From NCBI GenBank assembly GCA_028871055.1, contig JAGWON010000012.1, positions 1-40,444 on the forward strand: DNA of 40,444 nt, in the 5' to 3' direction. The stretch is from Alphaproteobacteria bacterium (GTDB lineage: Bacteria > Pseudomonadota > Alphaproteobacteria > ATCC43930 > CGMCC-115725). The translations under genes and the position numbers were made by a program. Below, piece by piece: positions 2,243 to 36,586 of the stretch. How positions within the stretch are numbered: the first letter of the stretch is position 1; each line of letters opens with the position of its first letter. The notes under the pieces were generated by a model. It saw only the letters and a program-made list of their open reading frames with translations, had not been told where the DNA came from and searched no databases.

Positions 2243-2572
2243 ATGCGACAGTTGCTGTCCCGTGCAGCCCGTGTCGCGGCTGTCGCGCTTGGCGCGCTCG
2301 CTTTCACCGCCGGCGTCGCGACGGCGGGCGATCACGAGGCCTTCATCGCCGGCACCGCGACGACCAAAACCAGCGCCACCAGCTTTTTCGCGCCGCTCTG
2401 GGTCTATCCGTCGATGCAAGGGATCGCACCGCTGATGGTCGCGCCGCCGCCGGCCGGGCCGGGGACGCTCGTCATCCGCGAGGCGCCGTCGCTGCTGACG
2501 CCGGCCGATCTGCGCTTCTCGGTCGAGAGCGAGAACGGCGTCACGGTGGTGCGCGGTCCGCGCGCACGCTGA
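2243..2572 (+). CDS. Small secreted protein of unknown function
   Basis: I do not recognise this 109-residue protein. It starts with a clear Sec signal peptide (basic MRQLLSRAAR, hydrophobic core to about residue 24, then ATAGDHE as likely cleavage region). The mature part, about 85 residues, is rich in Pro and Ala in the middle (APPPAGPGT) and ends in a short charged segment. The ATG at 2243 is preferred over a TTG at 2132 because GGAGGAC lies at 2232-2238 and the signal peptide begins here. It sits between the transporter pair and a secreted cupin gene in the same direction, with 55 bases to the next start, so the two exported proteins could be co-transcribed. Real gene likely; function unknown. 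Confidence 0.6.
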   Translation: MRQLLSRAARVAAVALGALAFTAGVATAGDHEAFIAGTATTKTSATSFFAPLWVYPSMQGIAPLMVAPPPAGPGTLVIREAPSLLTPADLRFSVESENGVTVVRGPRAR

Positions 2573-2627
2573 TTGTCGGCGTGGGAGCGCGCGGGGATTC
2601 GTTCCATCTGATCTCGGGAGAGCAAGG

Positions 2628-3038
2628 ATGATCCGAACCATCGCCGTCGGCGCAACGGCGGCGCTGTTGCTGGCCGTGTCCGCCGACGCGCAGCCGGCGC
2701 GGCCGCCGAAGCCGATTCCGACGCACGTCTTCCTCGACCACGTGCCGCTCAGCGGCGTTCCGGGCAAGAACACCACCATGCTGGCAATCGAGTGGCCGCC
2801 CAACGCCAGCAGCGGCCGCCATTACCACGCCGGCGACGAGTACGGGCTCGTCACCGAGGGCGCGCTGCGCATCACCTATTACAACGGCAAGCCGCCGCTG
2901 ACGGTGACCGCCGGCCACGCCTATCGTACGCCGGCAGGCGTCGTGCACGAGACGCGCAACGTCGCCTCCCGCATGACCTATTCGATCTCGGTGCTGGTGC
3001 TCGACCGCGGCAAGCCGCTGTCCATCCCGGCGAAGTGA
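2628..3038 (+). CDS. Secreted cupin-domain protein
   Basis: A 136-residue single-domain cupin with an N-terminal signal peptide (residues 1-21, ending ADAQP). Both cupin motifs are visible: HYHAGDEYGLVTEG, giving the HxH plus Glu metal ligands, and GHAYRTPAGVVHETRN, fitting G-x5-PxG-x2-H-x3-N with the fourth metal-binding His. The protein should therefore bind one divalent metal in a small beta-barrel, probably in the periplasm. The exact activity cannot be read from sequence: cupins range from dioxygenases to isomerases and sugar-binding proteins. The ATG at 2628 has GGGAGAGCAAGG just upstream. It follows another small exported protein in the same direction. Confidence 0.8.
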   Translation: MIRTIAVGATAALLLAVSADAQPARPPKPIPTHVFLDHVPLSGVPGKNTTMLAIEWPPNASSGRHYHAGDEYGLVTEGALRITYYNGKPPLTVTAGHAYRTPAGVVHETRNVASRMTYSISVLVLDRGKPLSIPAK

Positions 3039-3076
3039 CGGCCGCGGCACGGCTATATTTTCAAGCTGCGCAAATT

Positions 3077-3163
3077 TCCCGTACTTCCCTCCCCGCCAAG
3101 ATGGAGAGAGGATTGCTTTGGGTTGTCGACGCGCAGCAGAGCTTTACCGAGAGCTGGACGAAG
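3077..3163. repeat. Degenerate copy of intergenic palindromic repeat family B
   Basis: The stretch GAGAGAGGATTGCTTTGGG with the following bases matches the core of the intact repeat at 36486-36586 with few differences, then degrades towards its right arm (GCTTTACCGAGAGCTGG against CCTTACCCAAAGCTGGG). It fills most of the gap between the convergent cupin and deacetylase genes. The copy looks old and decayed. Confidence 0.55.
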
Positions 3164-3188
3164 GCATGCGCTATGGCGATCGGAATCG

Positions 3189-4121
3189 CTAGCCAGCGGC
3201 GCGCGGCCTGATCACCGCGGTCAGCGGCACCAGCACGATGCCCTGCCGCCGCAGGGTCGGCAGCCAGCGCGCCAGCGCCGCGAGCGTCGTCGCATGCGGG
3301 TGGCCGACGGCGATAGCGCTGCCGCGCTTGCGCGCGATCGCCACCAGCTGCGCCAGCCGCGCATCGACGGAGATTGCCGCCTCTTCGCCATCGAGGAAGA
3401 TGTCGCGTGACGCATAGGGCACGCCCAGGTCTTGCGCCGCCACCGCGACCGGCTCGGTCGGCGCGGCACGCGCATCGAGATAGAGCAGGCCGCGCTGCTT
3501 GAGCTCGCCCATCACCACGCGCATCGCCGGCGCATCGGCGGCGAATGCGGTGCCCATGTGATTGTCGATACCGACATAGCCGTCGAAGCGCGCCAGATCC
3601 CAGCGCAGCCGCCGCAGCAGCTCGTCGCGCGGCATGTAGCGGCCGAGTCCGTAGGCGCCCATCGCGGCGTTCACCGAAACCGGCTCCATCGGCACGCGCA
3701 GCAGCAGCTCGTGTCCGGCGCGGTGTGCCGCCGCGGCTTGGCCGGCGAGATCGGCGGCGTAGACGACGAACGACAGCGTCACCGCGGGCGGCAGCGCGAT
3801 GGCGCGCGCGGTCTTGGTGGAATCGATGCCGAGCCCGTCGATGATGACGACGACGCGCGGCCGGCCGTCGTCCGGCGGCGCCGGCACAGCGTAGCGGATC
3901 CAGGCCGGCAGGTTCTCGGGCGCGGCCGTCTTCGCCGGCAGCGGCACCGCCGCCGGCGGAATGATCGCCACCGCCTCGCTCGGACGCCGCGCGCGCTCCT
4001 GCCACACGCCGAAGGCGAGCAGCAGGGCGAGCGCCAGCAGCGCCCACAGGCGCCAGCGCCAGCGTCGCCGCCGCGGCTGCGGCGTCTCGTCTCGATGCTC
4101 GATCGTCTCGTTCACTGCCAC
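3189..4121 (-). CDS. Divergent polysaccharide deacetylase family protein
   Basis: A 310-residue protein with a short basic N-terminus, one transmembrane helix (about residues 26-45, WALLALALLLAFGVW) and a periplasmic catalytic-type domain. Motifs of the divergent polysaccharide deacetylase family (YibQ/DUF610) are present: VVVIIDGLGID, LRVPMEP, GIDNHMGTAF and AVGHPH, which supply the Asp and His positions expected to bind metal. Probable role is in cell-wall or periplasmic polysaccharide modification; substrate unknown. The start is set to GTG 4121, which has GAGG about nine bases upstream. The open frame upstream to 4244 runs through a palindromic non-coding stretch (TCCCGGACGCAAGGCCCGGGA) and is unlikely to be translated. 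A second GTG at 4115 is also possible. It is divergent from trpG. Confidence 0.8.
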   Translation of the reverse strand: MAVNETIEHRDETPQPRRRRWRWRLWALLALALLLAFGVWQERARRPSEAVAIIPPAAVPLPAKTAAPENLPAWIRYAVPAPPDDGRPRVVVIIDGLGIDSTKTARAIALPPAVTLSFVVYAADLAGQAAAAHRAGHELLLRVPMEPVSVNAAMGAYGLGRYMPRDELLRRLRWDLARFDGYVGIDNHMGTAFAADAPAMRVVMGELKQRGLLYLDARAAPTEPVAVAAQDLGVPYASRDIFLDGEEAAISVDARLAQLVAIARKRGSAIAVGHPHATTLAALARWLPTLRRQGIVLVPLTAVIRPRAAG

Positions 4122-4263
4122 GCGCTTCGTCCTCGTCCCGGACGCAAGGCCCGGGATGGCCCAGTCGGCCCCGCCTTTTTCTGTCATTCGCGCGGCCGAG
4201 CGGAACGGCTCCAGTTTAGCCGATCTCGCAGTGATGCGCCGCAACGGACGACTCCGCCGCGGC

Positions 4264-4292
4264 TTTTCCGCCCGCGCCCCGCCTGATATAAC
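4264..4292 (+). promoter_or_regulatory. Candidate sigma-70-type promoter of trpG
   Basis: TTTTCC at 4264-4269 and TATAAC at 4287-4292 are separated by 17 bases. The -10 hexamer matches the consensus at five of six positions and the -35 at three. Initiation near 4299 would give a very short leader before the trpG ATG at 4313, containing little beyond the ribosome binding site. That argues against classical trp attenuation at this spot. Confidence 0.4.
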
Positions 4293-4312
4293 CTCGGCGG
4301 AGAGGCCACGAA

Positions 4313-4897
4313 ATGTTCCTGCTGATCGATAACTACGACAGCTTTACTTACAACCTGTGGCACTACCTGGGCGAACTCGGCGCCGAGGTGGTCGTCAAGC
4401 GGAACGACGCCCTGTCGGTTTCCGATGCACTCGCGCTCAAGCCGCAGGGCATCGTGATCTCGCCCGGACCGAGCGACCCCGACCGCGCCGGCATTTGCCT
4501 CGAGCTCGTCGCCAAGGCCGGCCGGGTGCCGATGCTCGGCGTCTGTCTCGGCCACCAGGCGATCGGCCAAGTCTTCGGCGGCAAGGTGGTGCGCGCGAAG
4601 GTGCCGATGCATGGCAAGCTCAGCGAAATCCGCCACGATAACAGCGGCGTATTCGCGGGATTGCCCAATCCGTTCCGCGCGACGCGCTACCATTCGCTGA
4701 TCGTCGAGCGCGCGAGCCTGCCGGCCGCGCTGGTGGTGACTGCCGAGACTGCGGACGGCATCATCATGGGCCTCAAGCACCGCGAGCGGCCGGTGCACGG
4801 CGTGCAGTTCCATCCCGAGAGCATCGCATCCGAGGGCGGCCACCGCCTCCTCGAGAATTTCCTCGCGCTTGCCGCCGCCGAAAGCGTCGCGGCATGA
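4313..4897 (+). CDS. trpG: Anthranilate synthase component II (glutamine amidotransferase)
   Basis: A 194-residue class I glutamine amidotransferase that hydrolyses glutamine and passes ammonia to TrpE for anthranilate synthesis, the first step of tryptophan biosynthesis. The N-terminal signature [13 protein letters not shown], the oxyanion loop [11 protein letters not shown], the nucleophile Cys78 in [10 protein letters not shown], and the His167/Glu169 pair in VQFHPES complete the catalytic triad. Length is normal for a stand-alone TrpG. The same protein type can also serve PabB in folate synthesis. trpD follows after a 118-base gap filled by a palindromic repeat. No trpE precedes it, although trpE-trpG is the common alphaproteobacterial arrangement, so the large subunit must be encoded elsewhere. 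Confidence 0.95.
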
Positions 4898-4913
4898 GAC
4901 AGCCAGCATGTAA

Positions 4914-4965
4914 CGCCCCCCTCCCATCCCCTCGCCCTCGAGGGGGGAGGGTTAGGGAGGGGATA
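4914..4965. repeat. Palindromic repeat family A, trpG-trpD gap
   Basis: Pyrimidine-rich left arm (CCCCCCTCCCATCCCCTCG) and purine-rich right arm (GAGGGGGGAGGGTTAGGGAGG) meet around a CTCGAG centre. The RNA would form a long stem. The same design recurs at 6194-6247 and 40281-40327. Confidence 0.8.
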
Positions 4966-5015
4966 ACCTCGCGCCGCCGCTCGCGCGCTCATACGTCTTC
5001 CGATCGGAAGGCGGC

Positions 5016-6047
5016 ATGAGCGGTTCCACCGACTTCAAGGCGCTGCTGGCGAAGGTGGCGGCAGGCGAACGCCTGTCGGAGGCGGACGCCACGCGCGCCT
5101 TCGACGCGATGATGTCGGGCGACGCGACGCCGGCGCAGATGGGCGGCTTCCTCATGGCGCTGCGCGTGCGCGGCGAGACCGTCGACGAGATCGCCGCCGC
5201 GGCACACACCATGCGCAGCAAGGCATTGCACATCGAGGCGCCGGCCGACGCCATCGACGTCGTCGGCACCGGTGGTGACGGCCGCGGCAGCTTCAACGTC
5301 TCAACCGCGGCGGCGATCGTTGCCGCCGGCGCCGGCGCGCACGTTGCCAAGCACGGCAACCGCAACTTTTCGTCGCATTCGGGCTCGGCCGACATCCTCG
5401 CCGCGCTCGGCGTCAACATCGAGGCCGATCCCAGGCTGGTCGAGCGCGCGATCCACGAAGCCGGTATCGGCTTCATGATGGCGCCGCGCTATCACGCGGC
5501 GACGCGTCACGTCGCGCCGACGCGGGTCGAGCTTGGCACGCGCACGGTGTTCAACCTGCTGGGACCCTTGTCGAACCCGGCGCTGGTCAAACGCCTGCTG
5601 GTCGGCGTGTTCGCGCCGCAATGGGTGACGCCGGTAGCCGAGGTGCTGGGCAAGCTCGGCGCCGAGCACGCCTGGGTGGTGCACGGCGACGGCTTCGACG
5701 AGATCACCACCACCGGCAAGACCAGCGTGGCGGAGTGGAAGAACGGCAAGCTGGCGACCTTCGAGGTCGCGCCCGAAATGGCGGGATTGCCGCGCGCAAC
5801 GCCGGCGGATTTGAAGGGCGGCGATCCGCAAGCCAACGCGGCGAAACTCCGCGCGATCCTCGCCGGCGAGACCGGGAAGCTGCGCGATTGCGTGCTGCTC
5901 AATGCCGCGGCGGCGTTGATCGTCGCTGGCCGCGCCACCGATCTGATGGCCGGCGCGCGGCGCGCCGCGGACTCGATCGCGTCGGGCGCCGCGAAGCGTG
6001 CGCTCGAAAAGATGGTGGCGATCACCAACGAGACGGTGCCGGCGTGA
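5016..6047 (+). CDS. trpD: Anthranilate phosphoribosyltransferase
   Basis: A 343-residue enzyme that transfers phosphoribose from PRPP to anthranilate, the second committed step of tryptophan synthesis. The N-terminal helical domain (about 1-75) is followed by the glycine-rich PRPP site [17 protein letters not shown] and the anthranilate/PRPP motif [21 protein letters not shown]. The C-terminal [19 protein letters not shown] helix is also typical. Length is normal. The ATG at 5016 fits family N-termini (a short lead before [19 protein letters not shown]). It lies between trpG and trpC in the same direction, with repeat-filled gaps on both sides, so co-expression is likely but translational coupling is not. 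Confidence 0.96.
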
Positions 6048-6068
6048 GCGTGCTTGCAACCGTCCTTC

Positions 6069-6151
6069 GTCATGGCCGGGCTTGGCCCGGCCATCCACGT
6101 CTTGCACGCGGCGTCAAAGTCGTGGATGCCCGGAACAAGTCTGGGCATGAC
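6069..6151. repeat. Palindromic repeat family C, trpD-trpC gap
   Basis: Two hairpin units face each other: GTCATGGCCGGGCTTGGCCC with its complement arm ending in CCATCCACG, then CGTGGATGCCCGGAACAAGT with GGGCATGAC. The outer arms (GTCATGGCC..., ...GGGCATGAC) are also roughly complementary to each other. Related copies lie at 26448-26519, 38846-38992 and 40368-40398. Confidence 0.85.
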
Positions 6152-6193
6152 CAACGAAAGAGTCGATTATCCGCTGGCTGCAATCTTTGGCTA

Positions 6194-6247
6194 GCGCCCC
6201 CCCTCCCATTCCCTCCCCCTCGAGGGGGGAGGGAATGGGAGGGGGTG
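6194..6247. repeat. Palindromic repeat family A, just upstream of trpC
   Basis: This is a near-perfect inverted repeat. The left arm CCCCTCCCATTCCCTCCCCC is mirrored by GGGGGAGGGAATGGGAGGGG, with a CTCGAG centre and one extra G. It accounts for the open frame upstream of trpC, which is not part of the gene. Confidence 0.85.
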
Positions 6248-6282
6248 GCCGTTGTACTGCATTTCGACGAAAGGATGCCGGC

Positions 6283-7089
6283 ATGAACGACGTGCTGGCA
6301 CGCATATGCGCCGAAAAGCGCGCCGAGATCGCCGCCGCCAAGCGTGCGCATCCGTCGGCGGAGTTGGCGCATGCGGCGCGGCGCCTGGCGCCGCCGCGCG
6401 GCTTCGCCAAAGCGCTCGCTGCGGCGGTCGCGGCCGGACGCTACGGCCTCATCGCCGAGATCAAGATGGCGTCGCCCTCGGGCGGCATGATCCGGCCGGA
6501 TTTCGATCCCGCCGCACTGGCGCGCGCCTACGAGCGCGGCGGCGCCGCCTGTCTTTCGGTGCTGACCGACGAGCCCAATTTCAAGGGCCGGCCCGAGCAT
6601 CTGGTGCTGGCGCGTGCGGCGGTGAGGCTGCCGGTGCTGCGCAAGGATTTCATGCTCGATCCCTACCAGGTGAGCGAGGCGCGCGCCCTCGGCGCCGATT
6701 GCATCCTGATCATCCTGGCGGCGGTGAGCGATGCCGAGGCGGCGGCGCTGGAACGAGCGGCGCGCGAGCTCGGCATGGACGTTCTGGCCGAGGTGCACGA
6801 CACCGCGGAGCTGTACCGCGCGCTCAGGCTCAAGACGCGGCTCATCGGCATCAACAACCGCAACCTGAAGACGCTCAAGACCGACCTCGCCACGACCGAG
6901 AAGCTCGCTGCGCTGGTGCCGCGCGACCGGATCGTGGTGAGCGAGAGCGGAATATCCCAGCCCGCCGATCTGGCGCGGCTCGCCCGCGCCGGCGCCAAAT
7001 GTTTCCTGATCGGAGAGTCGCTGCTGCGCCAGCCCGACGTCGAGCAGGCGGCACGCGCCCTGCTCGCTCCCGCCGAGGCGCGGGCGTGA
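6283..7089 (+). CDS. trpC: Indole-3-glycerol phosphate synthase
   Basis: A 268-residue TIM-barrel enzyme closing the indole ring from 1-(o-carboxyphenylamino)-1-deoxyribulose 5-phosphate in tryptophan synthesis. Recognisable strands are [20 protein letters not shown] (with the substrate-binding Lys61), [40 protein letters not shown] and VSESGI, followed by the phosphate-binding FLIGESLL. The usual second Lys of the KKASPSKG motif is Met here, which is conservative for fold but worth noting. The ATG at 6283 is chosen because the family starts with a short helix like [16 protein letters not shown]. The 32 codons upstream in frame translate a palindromic repeat. trpC is followed by moaC after 121 bases. 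Confidence 0.95.
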
Positions 7090-7116
7090 TGCCGCGAACG
7101 ACGAAAATCCTTTTGG

Positions 7117-7195
7117 TCGTCATTCCCGCGAAAGCGGGAATCCAGGGTTGTCGCGGAGATGTCGCCCTGGACCTCCGCTTGCGCGGGGACGACGG
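7117..7195. repeat. Palindromic repeat family D, trpC-moaC gap
   Basis: CATTCCCGCGAAAGCGGGAA is itself a hairpin and continues into TCCAGGG. A second arm (CCCTGGACCTCCGCTTGCGC) pairs with it about 20 bases later. A related element is at 17051-17152. Confidence 0.75.
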
Positions 7196-7210
7196 ACTAT
7201 CGGTGGAAAG

Positions 7211-7693
7211 ATGAAGCGGCGTCGGCTCACCCATTTCGACAAGAAGGGCGCGGCGCGCATGGTCGACGTCTCGGCCAAGGACGTGACGGCGCGCGTCGCC
7301 ATCGCCAAGGGCAGCGTCACCATGAAGCGCGCGACGCTCGACCTCGTGCGCAAAGGCAAGGCGAAAAAGGGCGACGTGCTAGCGGTGGCGCGGCTCGCCG
7401 GCATCATGGGCGCCAAGCGGACGTCGGATCTCGTTCCCCTCACCCATCCGCTCGAGCTGTCGTCGGTGAACGTCGATCTGCGCTGCGACAAGAACCGCAA
7501 CGCCGTCGACATCACCGCCACCTGCAAGCTCACCGGCCGCACCGGCGTCGAGATGGAGGCGCTGACCGCGGTCGCGGTCGCGGCGCTCACGGTCTACGAC
7601 ATGCTCAAGGCGGTCGATCGCGGCATGAAACTTTCCGACATCCGCCTGGTTCACAAATCCGGCGGCAAGTCGGGCACCTTCGAGGCGGAATGA
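7211..7693 (+). CDS. moaC: Cyclic pyranopterin monophosphate synthase
   Basis: A 160-residue MoaC, acting with MoaA in the first stage of molybdenum cofactor synthesis (GTP to cyclic pyranopterin monophosphate). The N-terminal [19 protein letters not shown], the central [20 protein letters not shown] and the C-terminal [20 protein letters not shown] followed by MLKAVDRGM carry the conserved active-site His, Lys and Asp positions. Length is normal. The ATG at 7211 follows a purine-rich GGTGGAAAG. The longer open frame from 7148 reads through a palindromic repeat and is rejected. moaC and moeA are normally near neighbours here; they are now separated by an inserted KAP NTPase gene. Confidence 0.95.
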
Positions 7694-7730
7694 AAGTGCC
7701 ATCGCGTCCGCCGACAATCGCCGCGGGCTT

Positions 7731-7761
7731 GCCCCTCACCCTTCCCTCTTCCCCTTGAGGG
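7731..7761. repeat. Left half of a split family B palindrome
   Basis: GCCCCTCACCCTTCCCTCTT followed by CCCC-TTGAGGG is the left arm and centre of a family B element like the intact one at 36486-36586. Its right arm lies 2.2 kb away at 10001-10072. The last eleven bases (7751-7761, CCCCTTGAGGG) are repeated exactly at 10001-10011. Confidence 0.85.
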
Positions 7762-7765
7762 AAGC

Positions 7766-9913
7766 ATGCTGACCAACGACACCCCTATTACGAAACCGGA
7801 CGACGACCGCTTCGGGATTGATCCGTTTTCGCATGCTCTCGCAAGAGCCGTCGCGGAGATGCCAGCGCCCGAGGGCGTCGTCATTGGAATCAACGGGCCG
7901 TGGGGGTGCGGCAAAAGCAGCGCGCTCAATTTGATCCTGTACCACCTCAATCAGGCGATTTCAGACGGTAAGATCAAGGTGGTTCAGTTTAGCCCATGGT
8001 GGTTATCCGGAACTGATGCAATAGCGGCGACGTTCCTCGATGATCTTTTGACCGCGATCGGACCGTCTCTCGGGGATGCAGCAAAAATGGCATTCCAAGG
8101 CATGGCGAAAAAATTGCTGCGGTTCCGTAAGGCCGCAGCGCTTGCTGCGAATCTCGCAGTGCCGGGAGTTGGGACGGCGATCGACGGCGCTGCGCAGGCA
8201 GTTGAAGGTTTGCTGCCGGGTGATCCAAGTCTCGAATCTCAACACCAGAAGGTATCGGCGCTCCTGAAGGATTCGGATTGCCGCTATCTTGTGATCATCG
8301 ACGACATTGATCGACTGGCACCGGACGAGGCCCTAGAAGTGTTCAAGCTCGTTAAGTCGGTGGGTCAGCTATCAAACCTGATCTATATCCTGGCATTCGA
8401 CCGGGAACTCGCCGAGCGTCTCATCACAGAGCGGTTTCCGTCTGAAGGACCGCACTACCTCGAAAAAATTCTCCAGGCAGCGTTCGAGGTCCCGGCGGTG
8501 TCTCCCGCTGATATACGCGAGGCGTTTTTGGCTGAAGTGAACCATGTCTCTGCCCCTCGAACGGGGGAGGACGTGGTTCGCTTCATGAACATCATGCTTG
8601 AAGTTGTGACCCCATTTCTGAAGTCGCCCCGTGATCTCAAGCGTCTTATCGGGATGGTGCAGGTCACTTGGCCGGCAGTTGCCAGCGAGGTCGATCGCGC
8701 CGATTTCCTTGCGATCGAGGCCTTGCGGTTGTTCACGCCGGACTTATATCGAGCCATCCGGGACAACTCAGAGCGTTTGACAGGCGGAGCGCCGCGGTTG
8801 ACGAGCCGCTCGGATCAGGCCGCCGAATATGACGTGCTGCTCCTGGGCAACATCCGAGATCACGATAAGCCCAGGATTAGGCGTGCCTTACAGCGGTTGT
8901 TTCCTCGTTTGGAGTCCGTCTGGGCAAACGTCCATTACAATTCTGAGACGCGTTGGCGGCGACAACGCCTCATCTGTAGCGCAGATCATTTCCCGACGTA
9001 CTTTCGACTTTCGGTGGATGAATCAATCCTATCGGCGCGATCGATATCCGAAATCGTCGAGAAAGCTGGTGATCAGGAATACGTGCAGAAAACTCTGCGC
9101 CATGCGTCGAAGGAAATACTGAAATCAGGCAAAACAAGAGCGTCCATGTATTTGGATGAACTTCTCGTGCATGCAAGCGATATAGCGGAAGCGGACATCC
9201 AGCCGTTGGTCTCTGCCTTGTTCGAAGTTGCGGATGAACTTGATGTGGAATCTGACCAAGGAAAAGGGTTCGATTTGGTCAACAATCGGCTGCGTCTGCA
9301 CTGGATTCTTAACTCACTGGTTCGGGAGAGGCTTCCGCAATCGGCACGGATACCGCTTTTCGAGGCCGCAATGGAAGGAGCACCGCTCCACTGGTTTTGT
9401 GATTTCGCCGAGCGGTGCAACCGCGATCACACCGACAAAAAGGAAGTTACTCCGGAAGACCAACGCTTTGTCGATGCGAAGACCGCAAACGCATTTGTCC
9501 GGGACGCACTGAAGCGCCTGAGGCGCGCTGCCGATGACGGCAGCTTGCTCAGCCAAAACAAGCCCCTGTCATTGCTTTGGGAGTGGGCCAGGCTATCGTC
9601 TGAGGGAGAGGAAGAAGTGCGTCCTCGCCTAGAAGAGCTTCTTAAAGACGACAAGCAATTGATGCTATTCGTTCGCGACGCTGTGCAAATGGTCTGGTCG
9701 CAAGGGATGGGCATGTTTGGCTTAGGCGACCTTGTCTCTAAGGGCACCCCGCAGGTTAAGAAAGAGGCGATCATCCCCCTGCTCGATGAGAAGGTCTTTT
9801 TGGCTCGGGTCCGAGACGTCGCACAACGAACGACCGATGCCGCGGATAAGGAGTTTTTGAATTCGTTCCAGAAGACCTGGGCGGAGCAAAAGGACTCGCC
9901 TCTCGCCAAGTGA
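7766..9913 (+). CDS. KAP family P-loop NTPase
   Basis: A 715-residue protein with an N-terminal NTPase domain of the KAP type. Walker A is GPWGCGKSS (44-52), Walker B is YLVIIDDIDRL (174-184), and a sensor-like IYILAFDRELAERL (206-219) is followed by the family motif YLEKILQAAFEVP (231-243). Residues about 122-150 (AAALAANLAVPGVGTAIDGA) are moderately hydrophobic, where many KAP proteins carry membrane segments. The C-terminal two thirds is helical and unrecognised. KAP NTPases are linked to phage exclusion (PifA of F plasmid) and other membrane-associated functions; a defence role here is inference. The ribosome binding site GAGGGA (7757-7762) lies in the duplicated target sequence. Codon use and lower GC mark transfer. 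It separates moaC from moeA and has no partner gene. Confidence 0.85.
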   Translation: MLTNDTPITKPDDDRFGIDPFSHALARAVAEMPAPEGVVIGINGPWGCGKSSALNLILYHLNQAISDGKIKVVQFSPWWLSGTDAIAATFLDDLLTAIGPSLGDAAKMAFQGMAKKLLRFRKAAALAANLAVPGVGTAIDGAAQAVEGLLPGDPSLESQHQKVSALLKDSDCRYLVIIDDIDRLAPDEALEVFKLVKSVGQLSNLIYILAFDRELAERLITERFPSEGPHYLEKILQAAFEVPAVSPADIREAFLAEVNHVSAPRTGEDVVRFMNIMLEVVTPFLKSPRDLKRLIGMVQVTWPAVASEVDRADFLAIEALRLFTPDLYRAIRDNSERLTGGAPRLTSRSDQAAEYDVLLLGNIRDHDKPRIRRALQRLFPRLESVWANVHYNSETRWRRQRLICSADHFPTYFRLSVDESILSARSISEIVEKAGDQEYVQKTLRHASKEILKSGKTRASMYLDELLVHASDIAEADIQPLVSALFEVADELDVESDQGKGFDLVNNRLRLHWILNSLVRERLPQSARIPLFEAAMEGAPLHWFCDFAERCNRDHTDKKEVTPEDQRFVDAKTANAFVRDALKRLRRAADDGSLLSQNKPLSLLWEWARLSSEGEEEVRPRLEELLKDDKQLMLFVRDAVQMVWSQGMGMFGLGDLVSKGTPQVKKEAIIPLLDEKVFLARVRDVAQRTTDAADKEFLNSFQKTWAEQKDSPLAK

Positions 9914-9949
9914 ACTTGGCTACGGCCCTTGCCACTCCTGCAACCAACA

Positions 9950-10000
9950 TTTTTGTGCAGCCAAGGGACTTTTTGTGCAGGTAACCTATATTGTGCAAAA
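9950..10000. repeat. Iterated TTGTGCA motifs at the right edge of the insertion
   Basis: TTTTTGTGCAG occurs at 9950-9960 and again at 9970-9980. A third TTGTGCA is at 9991-9997, three bases inside the right 11-bp direct repeat. Spacing is 20 and 18 bases. Short iterated sites at one end are what a recombinase or transposase binding region looks like, but the left end has no counterpart. A weak hairpin (CCCTTG 9926-9931 with CAAGGG 9962-9967, then ACTTTTTG) overlaps the region and might end KAP transcription. Confidence 0.5.
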
Positions 10001-10072
10001 CCCCTTGAGGGGGAGAGAGTTGCTTTGGGTTGGCGAGGCGGACCCGAGCCTTACCCAAAGCTGGGTGAGGGG
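10001..10072. repeat. Right half of the split family B palindrome
   Basis: CCCCTTGAGGG is followed by GGAGAGAGTTGCTTTGGG, TTGGCGA and then CCTTACCCAAAGCTGGGTGA. The order matches the right half of the intact element at 36486-36586. Its terminal GGGTGAGGGG is complementary to CCCCTCACCC at 7732-7741, on the far side of the KAP gene. Confidence 0.85.
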
Positions 10073-10108
10073 TAAGCACATGCAGCCAAATAAGAACGAG
10101 CATTCGGC

Positions 10109-11347
10109 ATGAGCGACGGCGGCGGCAAGCAGGGCATGATCTCGGTCGACGAGGCGACACGCCGGCTCCTGGCGCTGATCCGGCCGCTCGGCGCCGAGCA
10201 GGTGGCGGTGAGCGAGGCGGCGGGCCGCGTGCTCGCCGAGGACGTCGTCGCCCGGCGGACGCAGCCGCCCTTCCCGGCCTCGGCGATGGACGGCTATGCC
10301 GCACGCAGCGTCGATGTCAAATCCGTGCCGGCAACGCTCAAGATCGTCGGCAACGTGCCGGCCGGCCAGGCCTATGGCAAGGCGCTCGGGCCGGGCGAAG
10401 CTGTGCGCATCTTCACCGGCGCGCCGGTGCCGGACGGCGCCGACTGCATCGTGATCCAGGAAGACACGGAACGCAGGGACGACGATGTCATCGTCAAGGA
10501 GATACCCAAGCCCGGCCGCCACATCCGTTCGGCGGGGCTCGACTTCCGCGACGGCGACGCCATGCTCAAGACCGGAACGCGGCTGACGCCGCGCGACGTC
10601 GGCTTGGCGGCGGCGATGAACCGGCCGTGGCTGTTGGTTCATCGTCGGCCGCGCGTCGCGATATTGCCCACCGGCGACGAGGTCGTGCTGCCCGGCGATC
10701 CGATCGGCCCCAACCAGATCGTGAGTTCCAACGGCATCGCGCTCGCCGCCTTCGTCGCCGGCGAAGGCGGCGTGCCGGTGCAGCTGCCGATCGCGCCCGA
10801 CGACAGCGACGCGCTCCGCGCCATCGCAGACGGCGCAAGCGGCGCCGATTTGCTGCTCACCAGCGGCGGCGCTTCGGTCGGCGAGCACGATCTGGTGCGC
10901 AGCGCGCTCGGCGCCGACGGTTTGAGTCTCGATTTCTGGACGGTGGCGATGCGGCCGGGCAAGCCGCTGATGGTCGGCAAATACCGCGCGACACCGATGA
11001 TCGGCCTGCCCGGAAATCCGGTCTCGGCGCTGGTCTGCGCGCTGCTCTTCGTCAAGCCGGCGCTCGAGAAGCTGCAAGGCCGGGCCGCGGCCGGTGCGGC
11101 CAATCCCAAGGCGCGGCTGGCCAAGGATTTGCCGGCCAACGACCGGCGGCAAGATTATCTCCGCGCCAAGCTGACGCGCGGTGCCGACGGCGTGGCTGAG
11201 GCGACGCCGTTCGACAAGCAGGACTCGTCGATGATGTCGCTGCTGGCGCGAGCCGATTGCCTCGTCGTGCGGCCGCCGCACGCGCCGCCGGCCAAGAAGG
11301 GCGAGTGGGTCGAGATCGTGCCGCTGGGCGTGGACGCGGTGGTTTAA
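10109..11347 (+). CDS. moeA: Molybdopterin molybdenumtransferase
   Basis: A 412-residue MoeA that inserts molybdate into adenylylated molybdopterin, the last general step of molybdenum cofactor synthesis. Visible motifs are PFPASAMDGYA near residue 55, FTGAPVPDGAD, the MoCF-fold segment VAILPTGDEVV, TSGGASVGEHD, AMRPGKPLMVG and GLPGNPVSALV, then a C-terminal beta domain (domain IV). Length is normal. The start ATG at 10109 lacks a strong ribosome binding site but agrees with family N-termini (MISVDEATRRLLALI follows closely). It is now separated from moaC by the inserted KAP gene, so it may depend on a different promoter from its ancestral operon. The downstream gene is convergent. Confidence 0.95.
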   Translation: MSDGGGKQGMISVDEATRRLLALIRPLGAEQVAVSEAAGRVLAEDVVARRTQPPFPASAMDGYAARSVDVKSVPATLKIVGNVPAGQAYGKALGPGEAVRIFTGAPVPDGADCIVIQEDTERRDDDVIVKEIPKPGRHIRSAGLDFRDGDAMLKTGTRLTPRDVGLAAAMNRPWLLVHRRPRVAILPTGDEVVLPGDPIGPNQIVSSNGIALAAFVAGEGGVPVQLPIAPDDSDALRAIADGASGADLLLTSGGASVGEHDLVRSALGADGLSLDFWTVAMRPGKPLMVGKYRATPMIGLPGNPVSALVCALLFVKPALEKLQGRAAAGAANPKARLAKDLPANDRRQDYLRAKLTRGADGVAEATPFDKQDSSMMSLLARADCLVVRPPHAPPAKKGEWVEIVPLGVDAVV

Positions 11348-20391: not shown

Positions 20392-23300
20392 GGCACCCCC
20401 TCGACCGCGGCGAGAGATGTGACGACGGTGCAGCGAAGACCCGTCGGCTCGAAATGGAGTCTGGCCTCGCCGTTGAGCTCGTGCGCGAGACCGCGCTCGA
20501 TCAACGTCGACCCGAAGCCACGTCGTCTCGGCTTCTCAACAGTGGGGCCGCCGCTTTCGACCCAAAGCACGTGCAGCCGGCGGCGCTCACCATGCCCGTC
20601 AACCTCCCATGAAAGTCGAATCTGCCCTTCTAGTACCGATAACGCCCCGTATTTCGCCGCGTTGGTCGCCAACTCGTGAAACATCATCCCAAGCGCGAGG
20701 GCCGCATTGGGCTTAAGAAAAACATCCGCGTCAGGAAGAATGACGGAATCCACGCCGGCCCGCTCGTAAAACCTTAGCTGCTGTCGCGCCACCTCGCGCA
20801 GCGACACGCCCTTCCAGCCACTCTGAGTCAGCAGGTCGTGCGTCTCAGCAAGCGCCATCAGCCGAAAACCGAAGGCCTGCTGGAACTCCTCGGTCGTTTC
20901 TGCGGTCTTAGACGTCTGAACCGCAATCGATTGCACAGTTGATAGAGTATTCTTCACGCGATGGTTCAACTCCTGCAGCAAGAGTTCCCGCTGCCGATCG
21001 GCGTGCTTGCGCTCGGTGATGTCGACGATTGCGCTGAGCACCAACAGCCCCTCATCGCTATGAATTGGATTTAGTCCAATCTCGACCGGGAATTCCGTGC
21101 CGTTCTTACGGACGCCGCGAAGGTCGCGGCCGACGCCCATCATCCGGGCTTCCGGCTGCTCGATGAACGCATTGCGATACCCTTCATGGTGCCGGCGGGC
21201 CGCCGCGGGAACCAACATATCAATCGAATGTCCGAGGAGTTCGTTCCGCGAATAGCCGAACAGGCGCTCGGTCCCGGCGTTGACCAGCACGATCTTGCCT
21301 GTGGTATCGGTCATGATCATGCCGCCGGGGAAGGCTTCGACCGCGGCGCGAAACTTCTCCTCGGCGCGCTCGCGCTCGGTTATATCGGCATTGATGTGGA
21401 TGACCCGCGCGGTGCCGTCCGGCTCGCGGTATCGCAGCCAGTTGCTCGCCACGATCACCACGCGGCCGTCGCGATGCCGGTGGACGAGTTTTCCGCTCCA
21501 CTTACCGGTGTGCTCGAATTCCGCCTCAATCTCGGACAGCGGTCTCGGAAACACCGTGGCAAGCAACTTGTGGAAGACACGGCCTCGCGCTTGTTCCGCC
21601 GAGTACCCATACAAGGCTTGCATGCCTTGGCTCCAATATTCGATCCGGCCCGATTCATCGCGGATCAACGCGGGCGTTAAATCGATGGCCGCGGCAATCC
21701 TGTGCTGACGCTGTTCTGTGATGTCGCGGCCGATCGTCGAAGCCGCGACGATGTTGCCGTCGTTATCCCTCACCGGAGAAATCGTGAGGGAAACCGCAAC
21801 CTGCGTCCGATCCTGTCTGATCCGCTCAATATCAAAGCTGTCGAATTTCTTGCCGCGTCTTAGTTCTTTGACGATCTTTGGAACTTCGTCGGCTTTGTCG
21901 GGAGGGATGAGCATCGCCAGCGGCTTGCCGACTGCTTCCGCGGCGGTATAGCCGAAGATACGCTCCGCCGCCTTATTCCAGCTCGTGATGGTGCCATTCA
22001 GCGTATGACCGATGACGGCGTCCTGCGTTGAGTCGACGATAGCGGCGAGCATCGCCCGATCCTGTTCGTGGCGCTTGCGGTCGGTGATGTCGAAAAACGT
22101 GAGCACGACGCCGTCAATGACATCGTCCAGCGTGCGATAGGGCCTGATGCGCATGAGGAACGTCGATGCGTCGTCTGCCGTGCGAACTTCATGCTCGACA
22201 ACCGACAGGTCACGCAATACCCGCGCCGCGTCGTGACGCAACTGGCTGTAGGCGACGCGGCTGACGATCTCGGTCACCGGCCGACCGCGGTCGCTGTCCC
22301 GCAAGTGGAAAAGACCGGTCATTGCCGGCGTGAAGCCATTAATTCGCAATTGACGATCGAGGAACAGCGTCGCGACCTGTGTACTATCGAGCAGGTTCTT
22401 GATGTCGCTGTTCGCGCGCAACAGTGCCTCGTTCTTACTGCTCAGCTCGGCGTTGACCGTCTGCAACTCCTCATTGATCGACTGCATCTCCTCCTTCGAG
22501 GTTTCCAACTCCTCATTCGTTGATTGCAGCTCCTCGTTGACGGACAGATATTCCTCATTGGAGGACTTCATTTCCTCGTTGGCGGTCTCGAGTTGATCGA
22601 TCGTGGCCTGCAGGCGCTCGCGGGTTGCGACGAGTTCCTTGTCGATCGCCTCGACAGGCGGCGGCTGGAACGCCGTAGGCGCAATGCCAGAGCTGCGGCC
22701 TCGGTCGAGGAACGCGATAACATAGAGACCGCCGTTATCCCCGGGGATTGGTTCGACGACCAGATCGACAAGCTGATGGTCGCTGCTGGCGTCCATGGCG
22801 AGCTGCGGGTGCTTAACGGCACGCTGCGTGCAGTGCGCCTTCAGCAGGGCGGCCCTCACCGCCGGGCGCAGTGGCTCCTGAAGCAGATTGAACAGGTTCA
22901 GACTCGCCGCGCCGGGCGAAGGTCCGAGGTATTTTTCGGTCTGTCCGGAGAATCGTACAATCTCGTAATTACCGTCGACCACGATATAGGGCGGAAAATG
23001 CTTTTCCATTATCCGGCGCGAACGCTTGTCCACATCGTCGAGCGGCGCGCGCGGCGCGGCCTGCTGAGTCGCGGTGTTTGCCGCCACGCCGAGCGGGAAA
23101 ATCGGAAGCGTCCCGGTGGCGATATTGCGCCGCCGAAAAATGCGGTGTTTTGAATTCACGGCCGCGAACAGCTTGCCATACCGCGTGACGCTTTCGGCGG
23201 TACCGAGGAACAGATAGCCACCCGGCCGTAGCGCATAATGGAACGTGCGGATCAGCCGGTCCTGCAGCGTGGAATCGAGATAGATCAGCAGATTGCGGCA

Positions 23301-36485: not shown

Positions 36486-36586
36486 GCCCCCTCACCCGTC
36501 CCTCTCCCCCTCACGGGGGAGAGGGTTGCTTTGGGTTGGCGAAGCCCGCGAACGGGCGAGCCTTACCCAAAGCTGGGTGAGGGGGC
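36486..36586. repeat. Intact palindromic repeat family B, uppS-cdsA gap
   Basis: The reference copy of this family in the window. Outer arms CCCCCTCACCC and GGGTGAGGGGG; inner arms CCCTCTCCCCCTCACGGGGG with AGAGGG; then TTGCTTTGGGTTGGCGA, a small hairpin, and CCTTACCCAAAGCTGGG. Nested hairpins would form in RNA. The order of parts is what identifies the split copy around the KAP gene and the decayed copy at 3077-3163. Confidence 0.85.

What the first reader, a model, noticed from the sequence alone, without database searches (positions are those of the whole stretch)
7731..10072. A one-gene insertion splits a palindromic repeat and duplicates 11 bp
CCCCTTGAGGG is present at both 7751-7761 and 10001-10011. 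The sequence left of the first copy and right of the second are the two halves of one family B palindrome, as shown by the intact copy at 36486-36586. Rejoining them at the 11-mer restores a normal element in the moaC-moeA gap. The cargo is a lower-GC KAP NTPase gene and nothing else. The 11-bp duplication has no transposase or terminal inverted repeats to explain it, so it may be an undescribed or non-autonomous single-gene element.
Basis: partly seen in the sequence, partly recalled or inferred. Interest (0 to 1): 0.78.

Follow-up and report, generated by a model that had tools for sequence, protein, structure and literature searches.

The report
Stranded defence-gene cargo of a transposon
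A probable anti-phage gene was dropped into a repeated DNA hairpin between two housekeeping genes by a kind of jumping DNA that also occurs in other bacteria and in archaea, and it now looks stuck there because one of the transposon's two ends is missing.

Summary
A repeated palindrome between moaC and moeA is split by about 2.25 kb carrying one intact KAP NTPase gene (near full-length PifA-type match), and rejoining the halves restores a normal element. The interpretation needs changing: the insert does have a transposon end. Its last 56 bp (9947-10002) match a three-site end seen in loci from Bacteria, Archaea and viral contigs. Twelve complete relatives define the family: terminal repeat GGCTTTGCACA, a 9-bp target duplication (10 exact, 2 with one mismatch), and an open DDE_Tnp_1 transposase in five. 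So the 11 bp is a 9-bp duplication (CCTTGAGGG) plus the element's terminal CC, which happens to match the target. The left end is absent here, so the copy is probably immobile, through a deletion reaching KAP's start codon or through one-ended insertion. Eight of 12 insertion sites tested (window included) lie in strong hairpins. Four of nine cargo-bearing elements (window included) carry matches to defence-gene models. Best filed as a remnant of a passenger-carrying DDE transposon: a new variant of a known kind. The open papers searched did not describe the family; ISfinder could not be searched.

The parts
7734..7761 (+). left half of the interrupted family-B palindrome
   Evidence: rejoined with 10012-10072 it aligns with 14 other copies without a gap at the join
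7753..7761 (+). left copy of the 9-bp target duplication, CCTTGAGGG
7762..10002 (+). what remains of the inserted element (2241 bp); no left terminal repeat at its left edge
   Evidence: left edge has 7 of 11 mismatches to GGCTTTGCACA and -11.8 bits on the left-end profile
7766..9913 (+). KAP NTPase gene, PifA-type, 715 codons, Walker A GPWGCGKS and Walker B LVIIDDID present
9947..10002 (+). right transposon end: sites TTTTTGTGCAG (9950-9960), TTTTTGTGCAG (9970-9980) and terminal TTGTGCAAAACC (9991-10002)
   Evidence: 59.4 bits on a profile of 23 other right ends, next best place in the window -5.0
10003..10011 (+). right copy of the 9-bp target duplication, CCTTGAGGG
10012..10072 (+). right half of the interrupted family-B palindrome
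7211..7693 (+). moaC, upstream host gene (start codon chosen by me)
10109..11347 (+). moeA, downstream host gene

Best explanation
The KAP gene is a passenger of a DDE transposon that inserted near the axis of a repeated palindrome between moaC and moeA and duplicated 9 bp of target. The transposon belongs to a family with terminal repeat GGCTTTGCACA, repeated 11-bp sites inside the ends, a DDE_Tnp_1 transposase that reads towards the left end, and variable cargo. In this copy the right end and both target copies survive; the left end and any transposase are gone, and KAP's start codon lies 5 bp from the left target copy. Most likely a later deletion joined the G-run formed by the target and the left terminus to G-rich sequence just before KAP, which immobilised the copy and left KAP in line with moaC transcription. 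Shown: duplication, right end, complete relatives and their transposases, missing left end. Inferred: deletion rather than one-ended insertion, mobilisation by that transposase, read-through expression, anti-phage function.
For: Right-end profile hit 59.4 bits. Twelve complete relatives with 9-bp duplications next to the same termini: exact in L124, L182, L254, L278, L294, L336, L341, L392, L396, L401; one mismatch in L215 and L216. In the window the duplication begins exactly where the family's right terminus ends. Open DDE_Tnp_1 frames inside L182, L294, L341, L392, L396 and a remnant inside L216. Gap-free rejoining of the palindrome. PADLOC PifA 3.8e-116 over residues 3-702. Lower GC of the insert.
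Against: The scan that found the relatives was built on the window's own TTGTGCA triple, so that core is shared by construction. The window's terminus reads AAAACC where the others read AAAGCC or, in L401, AAAGCT. No copy with a left end, no exact empty site and no transposase of this kind was found in the own genome. Twelve of the 23 profiled right ends have no left partner in the sequence held, three or four of them with 4 to 14 kb upstream. Many relatives come from metagenome-assembled genomes.
Confidence: 0.87

Rival explanations
1. One-ended transposition: the transposase used the right end and an arbitrary second end just before KAP, so the 9-bp duplication arose directly and no deletion followed.
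For: The left target copy is perfect and abuts non-terminal sequence, which one-ended events would give (recalled for Tn3-type elements; the listing was seen, no paper read).
Against: None of 13 other right ends checked shows an exact 9-mer upstream without a left terminus; the G-run GAGGG + GG makes a deletion with a clean-looking target copy cheap. One-ended insertion is not known to me for IS5-like elements.
Confidence: 0.25
2. Not a transposon: a circle or fragment with KAP recombined into the palindrome through the common 11-bp palindrome centre CCCCTTGAGGG.
For: CCCCTTGAGGG is a recurrent palindrome centre in this genome, 11 copies.
Against: The insert ends in a 56-bp sequence that in complete elements of other genomes abuts 9-bp duplications; chance recombination would not place it exactly at the duplication.
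Confidence: 0.04
3. Passenger of an IS1595-family element, like the one on contig C7 that sits in a similar palindrome.
For: C7:2259-4240 has an IS1595 transposase, an extra ORF and an 8-bp duplication CTTGAGGG in a CCCCTTGAGGGG centre.
Against: Terminal repeats differ (GGGAATTATCCC against GGTTTTGCACAA), non-palindromic targets fix the duplication at 9 bp, and the family's transposase is DDE_Tnp_1.
Confidence: 0.02

Closest known systems
IS903 / IS903B (IS5 family)
   Same: Terminal repeat begins GGCTTTG and the duplication is 9 bp (PMC10569121, passages); NCBIfam puts the relatives' transposases nearest an IS5-family model.
   Different: Then TTGAATAAATC, not CACAA; passengers, three-site ends and, in two of five transposases tested with Pfam, a SWIM zinc finger; the two IS5_2 scores seen (135.5 and 100.4) are below the cut-off of 140.
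Mobile insertion cassettes (transposase-less cassettes with a passenger gene)
   Same: Passenger gene, no transposase, transposon end present, as in the qnrS2 cassette of pAC3 (PMC5444012, passages).
   Different: The window copy has one end only, so it is a remnant; the relatives L336 and L254 have both ends and no transposase found.
IS elements that target REP palindromes (for example ISRm22)
   Same: Insertion at the palindromy axis with a direct repeat (PMC1525189, abstract and passages).
   Different: Those are plain IS elements of named families with 3- or 6-bp repeats in the passages seen; here 9 bp and a defence-like passenger.
PifA of the F plasmid
   Same: Near full-length match to the PADLOC PifA model.
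   Different: The best relatives found are 41% identical or less; activity untested.
IS1595-family element on contig C7 of the same genome
   Same: Also in a CCCCTTGAGGGG palindrome and also with an extra ORF.
   Different: 8-bp duplication, other terminal repeats, other transposase family.

Membership tests
Transposon family defined here (GGCTTTGCACA ends, DDE_Tnp_1) | three-site right end with terminal TTGTGCAAARCC | tested here: met
   59.4 bits at 9947-10002; terminal AAAACC instead of AAAGCC
Transposon family defined here (GGCTTTGCACA ends, DDE_Tnp_1) | 9-bp target duplication starting at the right terminus | tested here: met
   CCTTGAGGG at 7753-7761 and 10003-10011
Transposon family defined here (GGCTTTGCACA ends, DDE_Tnp_1) | left end GGCTTTGCACA with inner sites | tested here: not met
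   7 of 11 mismatches; -11.8 bits: the window copy is a remnant, not a complete member
Transposon family defined here (GGCTTTGCACA ends, DDE_Tnp_1) | encoded DDE_Tnp_1 transposase | tested here: not met
   none in the insert and none in the own genome at E 1e-8; seven of the twelve complete relatives also lack an open one in my reading
IS903 group of the IS5 family | GGCTTTG terminal repeat and 9-bp duplication | tested here: met
   in the relatives against IS903B in print
IS903 group of the IS5 family | transposase above the curated IS5_2 cut-off | tested here: not met
   L294 135.5 and L182 100.4 against 140; scores of the other two members were not shown
Mobile insertion cassette | passenger gene between two transposon ends, no transposase | tested here: not met
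   only one end in the window; L336 and L254 have two
REP-targeting IS | insertion at the axis of a repeated palindrome | tested here: met
   window stem of 8 pairs, reached at 10 of 399 background places; gap-free rejoining
PifA-type KAP NTPases | full-length model match with Walker motifs | tested here: met
   3.8e-116, residues 3-702; motifs at 44 and 175
PifA-type KAP NTPases | phage exclusion | not testable with these tools
   needs a plating assay
IS1595 family | 8-bp duplication and IS1595 transposase | tested here: not met
   9-bp family with DDE_Tnp_1; IS1595 only in the C7 element

The most novel reading that the evidence does not exclude
The insert exposes an undescribed transposon family present in Bacteria (complete copies in Alphaproteobacteria, Planctomycetota, Acidobacteriota and Falkowbacteria) and Archaea (Woesearchaeota, Nanoarchaeia, Methanocellaceae) that prefers hairpins as landing sites and ferries defence genes (PifA, Type II and IIG restriction-modification, a DUF488 candidate), whose cargo then becomes fixed in the host by loss of one end.
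Probability: 0.35. Interest if true: 0.72.

Novelty: new variant of a known kind. Interest (0 to 1): 0.55.

Why it matters
It turns an odd one-gene insertion into a traceable route for single defence genes. A DDE transposon lands in a repeated intergenic palindrome, where it breaks no gene, leaves a passenger without a recognisable promoter beside a host operon, and the passenger stays when one end is lost. The 56-bp right end is a tag by which such stranded cargo can be found when no transposase remains, in bacteria and in archaea. If the defence bias of the cargo holds up in a proper survey, it would add a small, overlooked carrier of immunity genes.

Tried and rejected
IS1595 as carrier: considered because the C7 element of the same genome sits in the same kind of palindrome and because L254 can be parsed with an 8-bp duplication; rejected once non-palindromic targets (L124, L182, L341) fixed 9 bp and the transposase proved to be DDE_Tnp_1. 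IS4/IS231-type 10-12-bp duplications (recalled): considered on the apparent 11-12 bp, dropped for the same reason. Plasmid iterons for the TTGTGCA triple: dropped when the triple was found at element ends. Rfam on 7000-10800: one match up to E 1, Twister-sister at 7490-7599 inside moaC, 24.1 bits against a gathering score of 34. RNA fold of the right end: z -1.54; DNA fold of 9905-10075: z -2.58, partly the palindrome itself.

Empty or negative results: KAP relatives by peptide pattern in genome contigs none (finds close relatives only), phages none at E 1e-5, plasmids 1057 records, all under 60% identity; KAP in none of same-genus G001-G003 and in 13 of 99 relatives including the own genome, best other 41%. 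Right-end pattern with RCCC: only the own genome of 385, none in viral contigs. Transposase by peptide pattern in viral contigs none, although L341 and L342, found by their ends, encode it and L344 does in part. Transposase profile: 0 of 299 phylum genomes at E 1e-25; in a control set of 16 genomes with known right ends, 10 match at 1e-10 and 5 of these at 1e-25. Right-end-like rows left out of the 23-row profile by my judgement: L185, L287, L309, L340, and L354 as a second copy of L124; L395, L399 and L401 were found after it was built. Three of the 23 (L348, L349, L353) show only two of the three sites.

Papers: searches are search listings; only PMC1525189 (abstract, passages), PMC10569121 (passages) and PMC5444012 (passages) were opened. 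One search found one or other terminal-repeat string in 35 papers, 20 of them listed; among the listed titles only the IS903B paper is about insertion sequences, and 15 were not seen.

Full report
Observation. CCCCTTGAGGG stands at 7751-7761 and 10001-10011. The sequences outside the two copies are halves of one family-B palindrome: joined, they align with 14 other copies of the same genome without a gap at the join, with a loop as long as in four of them. One copy as query gives 41 matches including itself, some partial. The cargo is one ORF, 7766-9913, 715 codons. It matches Pfam KAP_NTPase (1e-43) and, nearly full length, the PADLOC PifA model (3.8e-116, residues 3-702). It is poorer in GC than its surroundings (55% against 66%; GC3 63% against 89% for moeA). 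The exact empty site was not found: in G001 moaC and moeA abut, in G003 the gap holds another palindrome, in G002 moaC was not found.

TTGTGCA occurs three times in the window, all within 50 bp at the right end of the insert (9953, 9973, 9991); about 1.3 per strand are expected by a dinucleotide model. A profile of 23 other right ends (three of them with only two of the three sites) scores window 9947-10002 at 59.4 bits; the next best place scores -5.0 and the best of 20 shuffles -3.0. The TTGTGCA core is shared by construction, because the pattern came from the window. The terminus, the duplication, the left end and the transposase are not.

What the element is. For each right end I compared the 9 bp after it with the 9 bp before any GGCTTTGCACA-like sequence upstream. 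Exact pairs: L124 (120 bp), L182 (4066), L254 (737, Planctomyces), L278 (86, Methanocellaceae), L336 (2909, Reyranella), L341 (3833), L392 (3478, Acidobacteria), L396 (8454, Nanoarchaeia), L401 (1532, Falkowbacteria; terminus AAAGCT) and L294 (Woesearchaeota; its right flank lies on a second contig, taken as the continuation). One-mismatch pairs: L216 (2531, Xanthobacteraceae, also one mismatch in the terminal repeat) and L215 (97). Of the 23 profiled right ends, 11 are paired; L401 was added later. The other 12 have no partner in the sequence held: some are cut by a contig or locus end, but L240 (4.0 kb upstream), L205/L402 (10.3), L222/L403 (10.2) and L353 (14.3) are not short. Targets that are not palindromic, such as AACCGGAGC in L124, fix the duplication at 9 bp. 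In the window it is therefore CCTTGAGGG at 7753-7761 and 10003-10011; the CC before it belongs to the element.

Transposase. L294 carries a 354-aa DDE_Tnp_1 protein beside its left end. Related proteins, 40-48% identical by tblastn, lie in L275/L392, L182, L341 and L342, and a 55-aa remnant lies inside the L216 element. L396 has a DDE_Tnp_1 protein as well. In these the gene reads towards the left end; it lies next to that end in L294, L341, L342 and L396, and deeper inside in L182 and L392. Pfam finds a SWIM zinc finger in L182 and L342 but not in L275, L294 or L396. NCBIfam places all four members of the alignment nearest IS5_2, and the two scores shown are below its cut-off. The own genome has no such gene at E 1e-8; of the 42 other genomes of the order, three gave fragments or distant hits. 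The profile found none in 299 genomes of the phylum at 1e-25; in 16 genomes with known right ends it found 10 at 1e-10 and 5 at 1e-25.

The missing left end. The left boundary AAGCATGC has 7 of 11 mismatches to GGCTTTGCACA and scores -11.8 bits on a left-end profile whose ten members score 24.9 to 55.5. At 13 other right ends checked there is no exact 9-mer upstream that lacks a left terminus, so such a half-element is unusual. I prefer a deletion whose left break lies in the G-run formed by the target (GAGGG) and the terminal GG, and whose right break lies in G-rich sequence before KAP; the perfect target copy then costs little. One-ended insertion stays open. Either way the copy should be immobile. 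KAP's ATG lies 5 bp from the target copy, no sigma-70-type promoter was matched in 7650-10150 (0.9 expected), and KAP has the strand of moaC and moeA, so read-through expression is plausible and untested.

Target choice. At 8 of 12 empty sites (window, L215, L216, L254, L278, L336, L392, L401) a hairpin of 7 to 11 pairs is centred on the duplication; at most 11 of about 390 random places in the same locus reach as much. At 4 of 12 (L124, L182, L341, L396) there is no such excess (L294 not tested). Insertion of IS elements at the axis of repeated palindromes is known (PMC1525189). In the same genome an IS1595-family element with an extra ORF sits in another CCCCTTGAGGGG palindrome with an 8-bp duplication.

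Cargo. Of nine elements with protein-sized cargo, four match a defence model: the window (PifA), L341 (Type II methyltransferase 1.6e-146; the neighbour only weakly like a restriction enzyme, 0.009), L396 (Type IIG restriction-methylation enzyme 1.3e-147, specificity subunit 5.4e-50, candidate PDC-S01 2.3e-52) and L294 (DUF488, candidate PDC-M19A 3e-38). In five I found none or only weak matches: L182, L216, L336 (Cas2-like, 1.9e-4), L392 (a response regulator; PD-T4-6 1.1e-4) and L401. Not every ORF was scanned. This is suggestive, not a test of enrichment.

Comparison and verdict. Terminal repeat and duplication resemble IS903B (GGCTTTGTTGAATAAATC, 9 bp; PMC10569121). The passengers, the repeated inner sites, the occasional SWIM domain and the sub-threshold IS5 scores keep me from filing the family there. 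It works like a passenger-carrying IS or mobile insertion cassette, but the window copy fails that definition because one end is missing. The searches of open papers showed no description of the family in what was listed; ISfinder and closed literature were not searched. The finding is real, and its explanation is a stranded transposon passenger.

Noticed in passing
L026:2259-4240 (own genome, contig C7): IS1595-family element (Zn-ribbon + ISXO2-like transposase) with an extra 254-codon ORF without a Pfam match, terminal repeats GGGAATTATCCC and 8-bp duplication CTTGAGGG, inside another CCCCTTGAGGGG palindrome: a second, unrelated element in the same kind of target.
   Followed up: partly
L047 and L051 (own genome, C29:16806 and C15:70138): Family-B palindromes whose two halves are separated by a further short repeat (…GAGGAGCC ACGCGCTCTC CTTCGAG…), as if one repeat family had inserted into another.
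   Followed up: no
L064:1978-2090 (G003, same genus, moaC-moeA gap): The moaC-moeA gap holds a different palindrome (CCCTCCCCCCTCGAGGGGGAGGG type) here and no palindrome in G001, so repeated palindromes turn over at this spot between species.
   Followed up: no
L396 (Nanoarchaeia genome, G704:C1), element on the - strand 2358-10811: 8.45-kb complete element with exact duplication TCTGATAGA carrying a Type IIG restriction-modification gene, a specificity subunit, an AAA/DUF4143 protein and a PD-(D/E)XK nuclease.
   Followed up: partly
L124 and L354 (viral contigs), L278, L215: Very short elements of the same family (86-120 bp) with both ends and no room for a gene; L124 and L354 share element and target copies.
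   Followed up: no
window 22438-22580: Six copies of a direct repeat with a 21-bp period (CTCCTCATT-like), probably coding.
   Followed up: no
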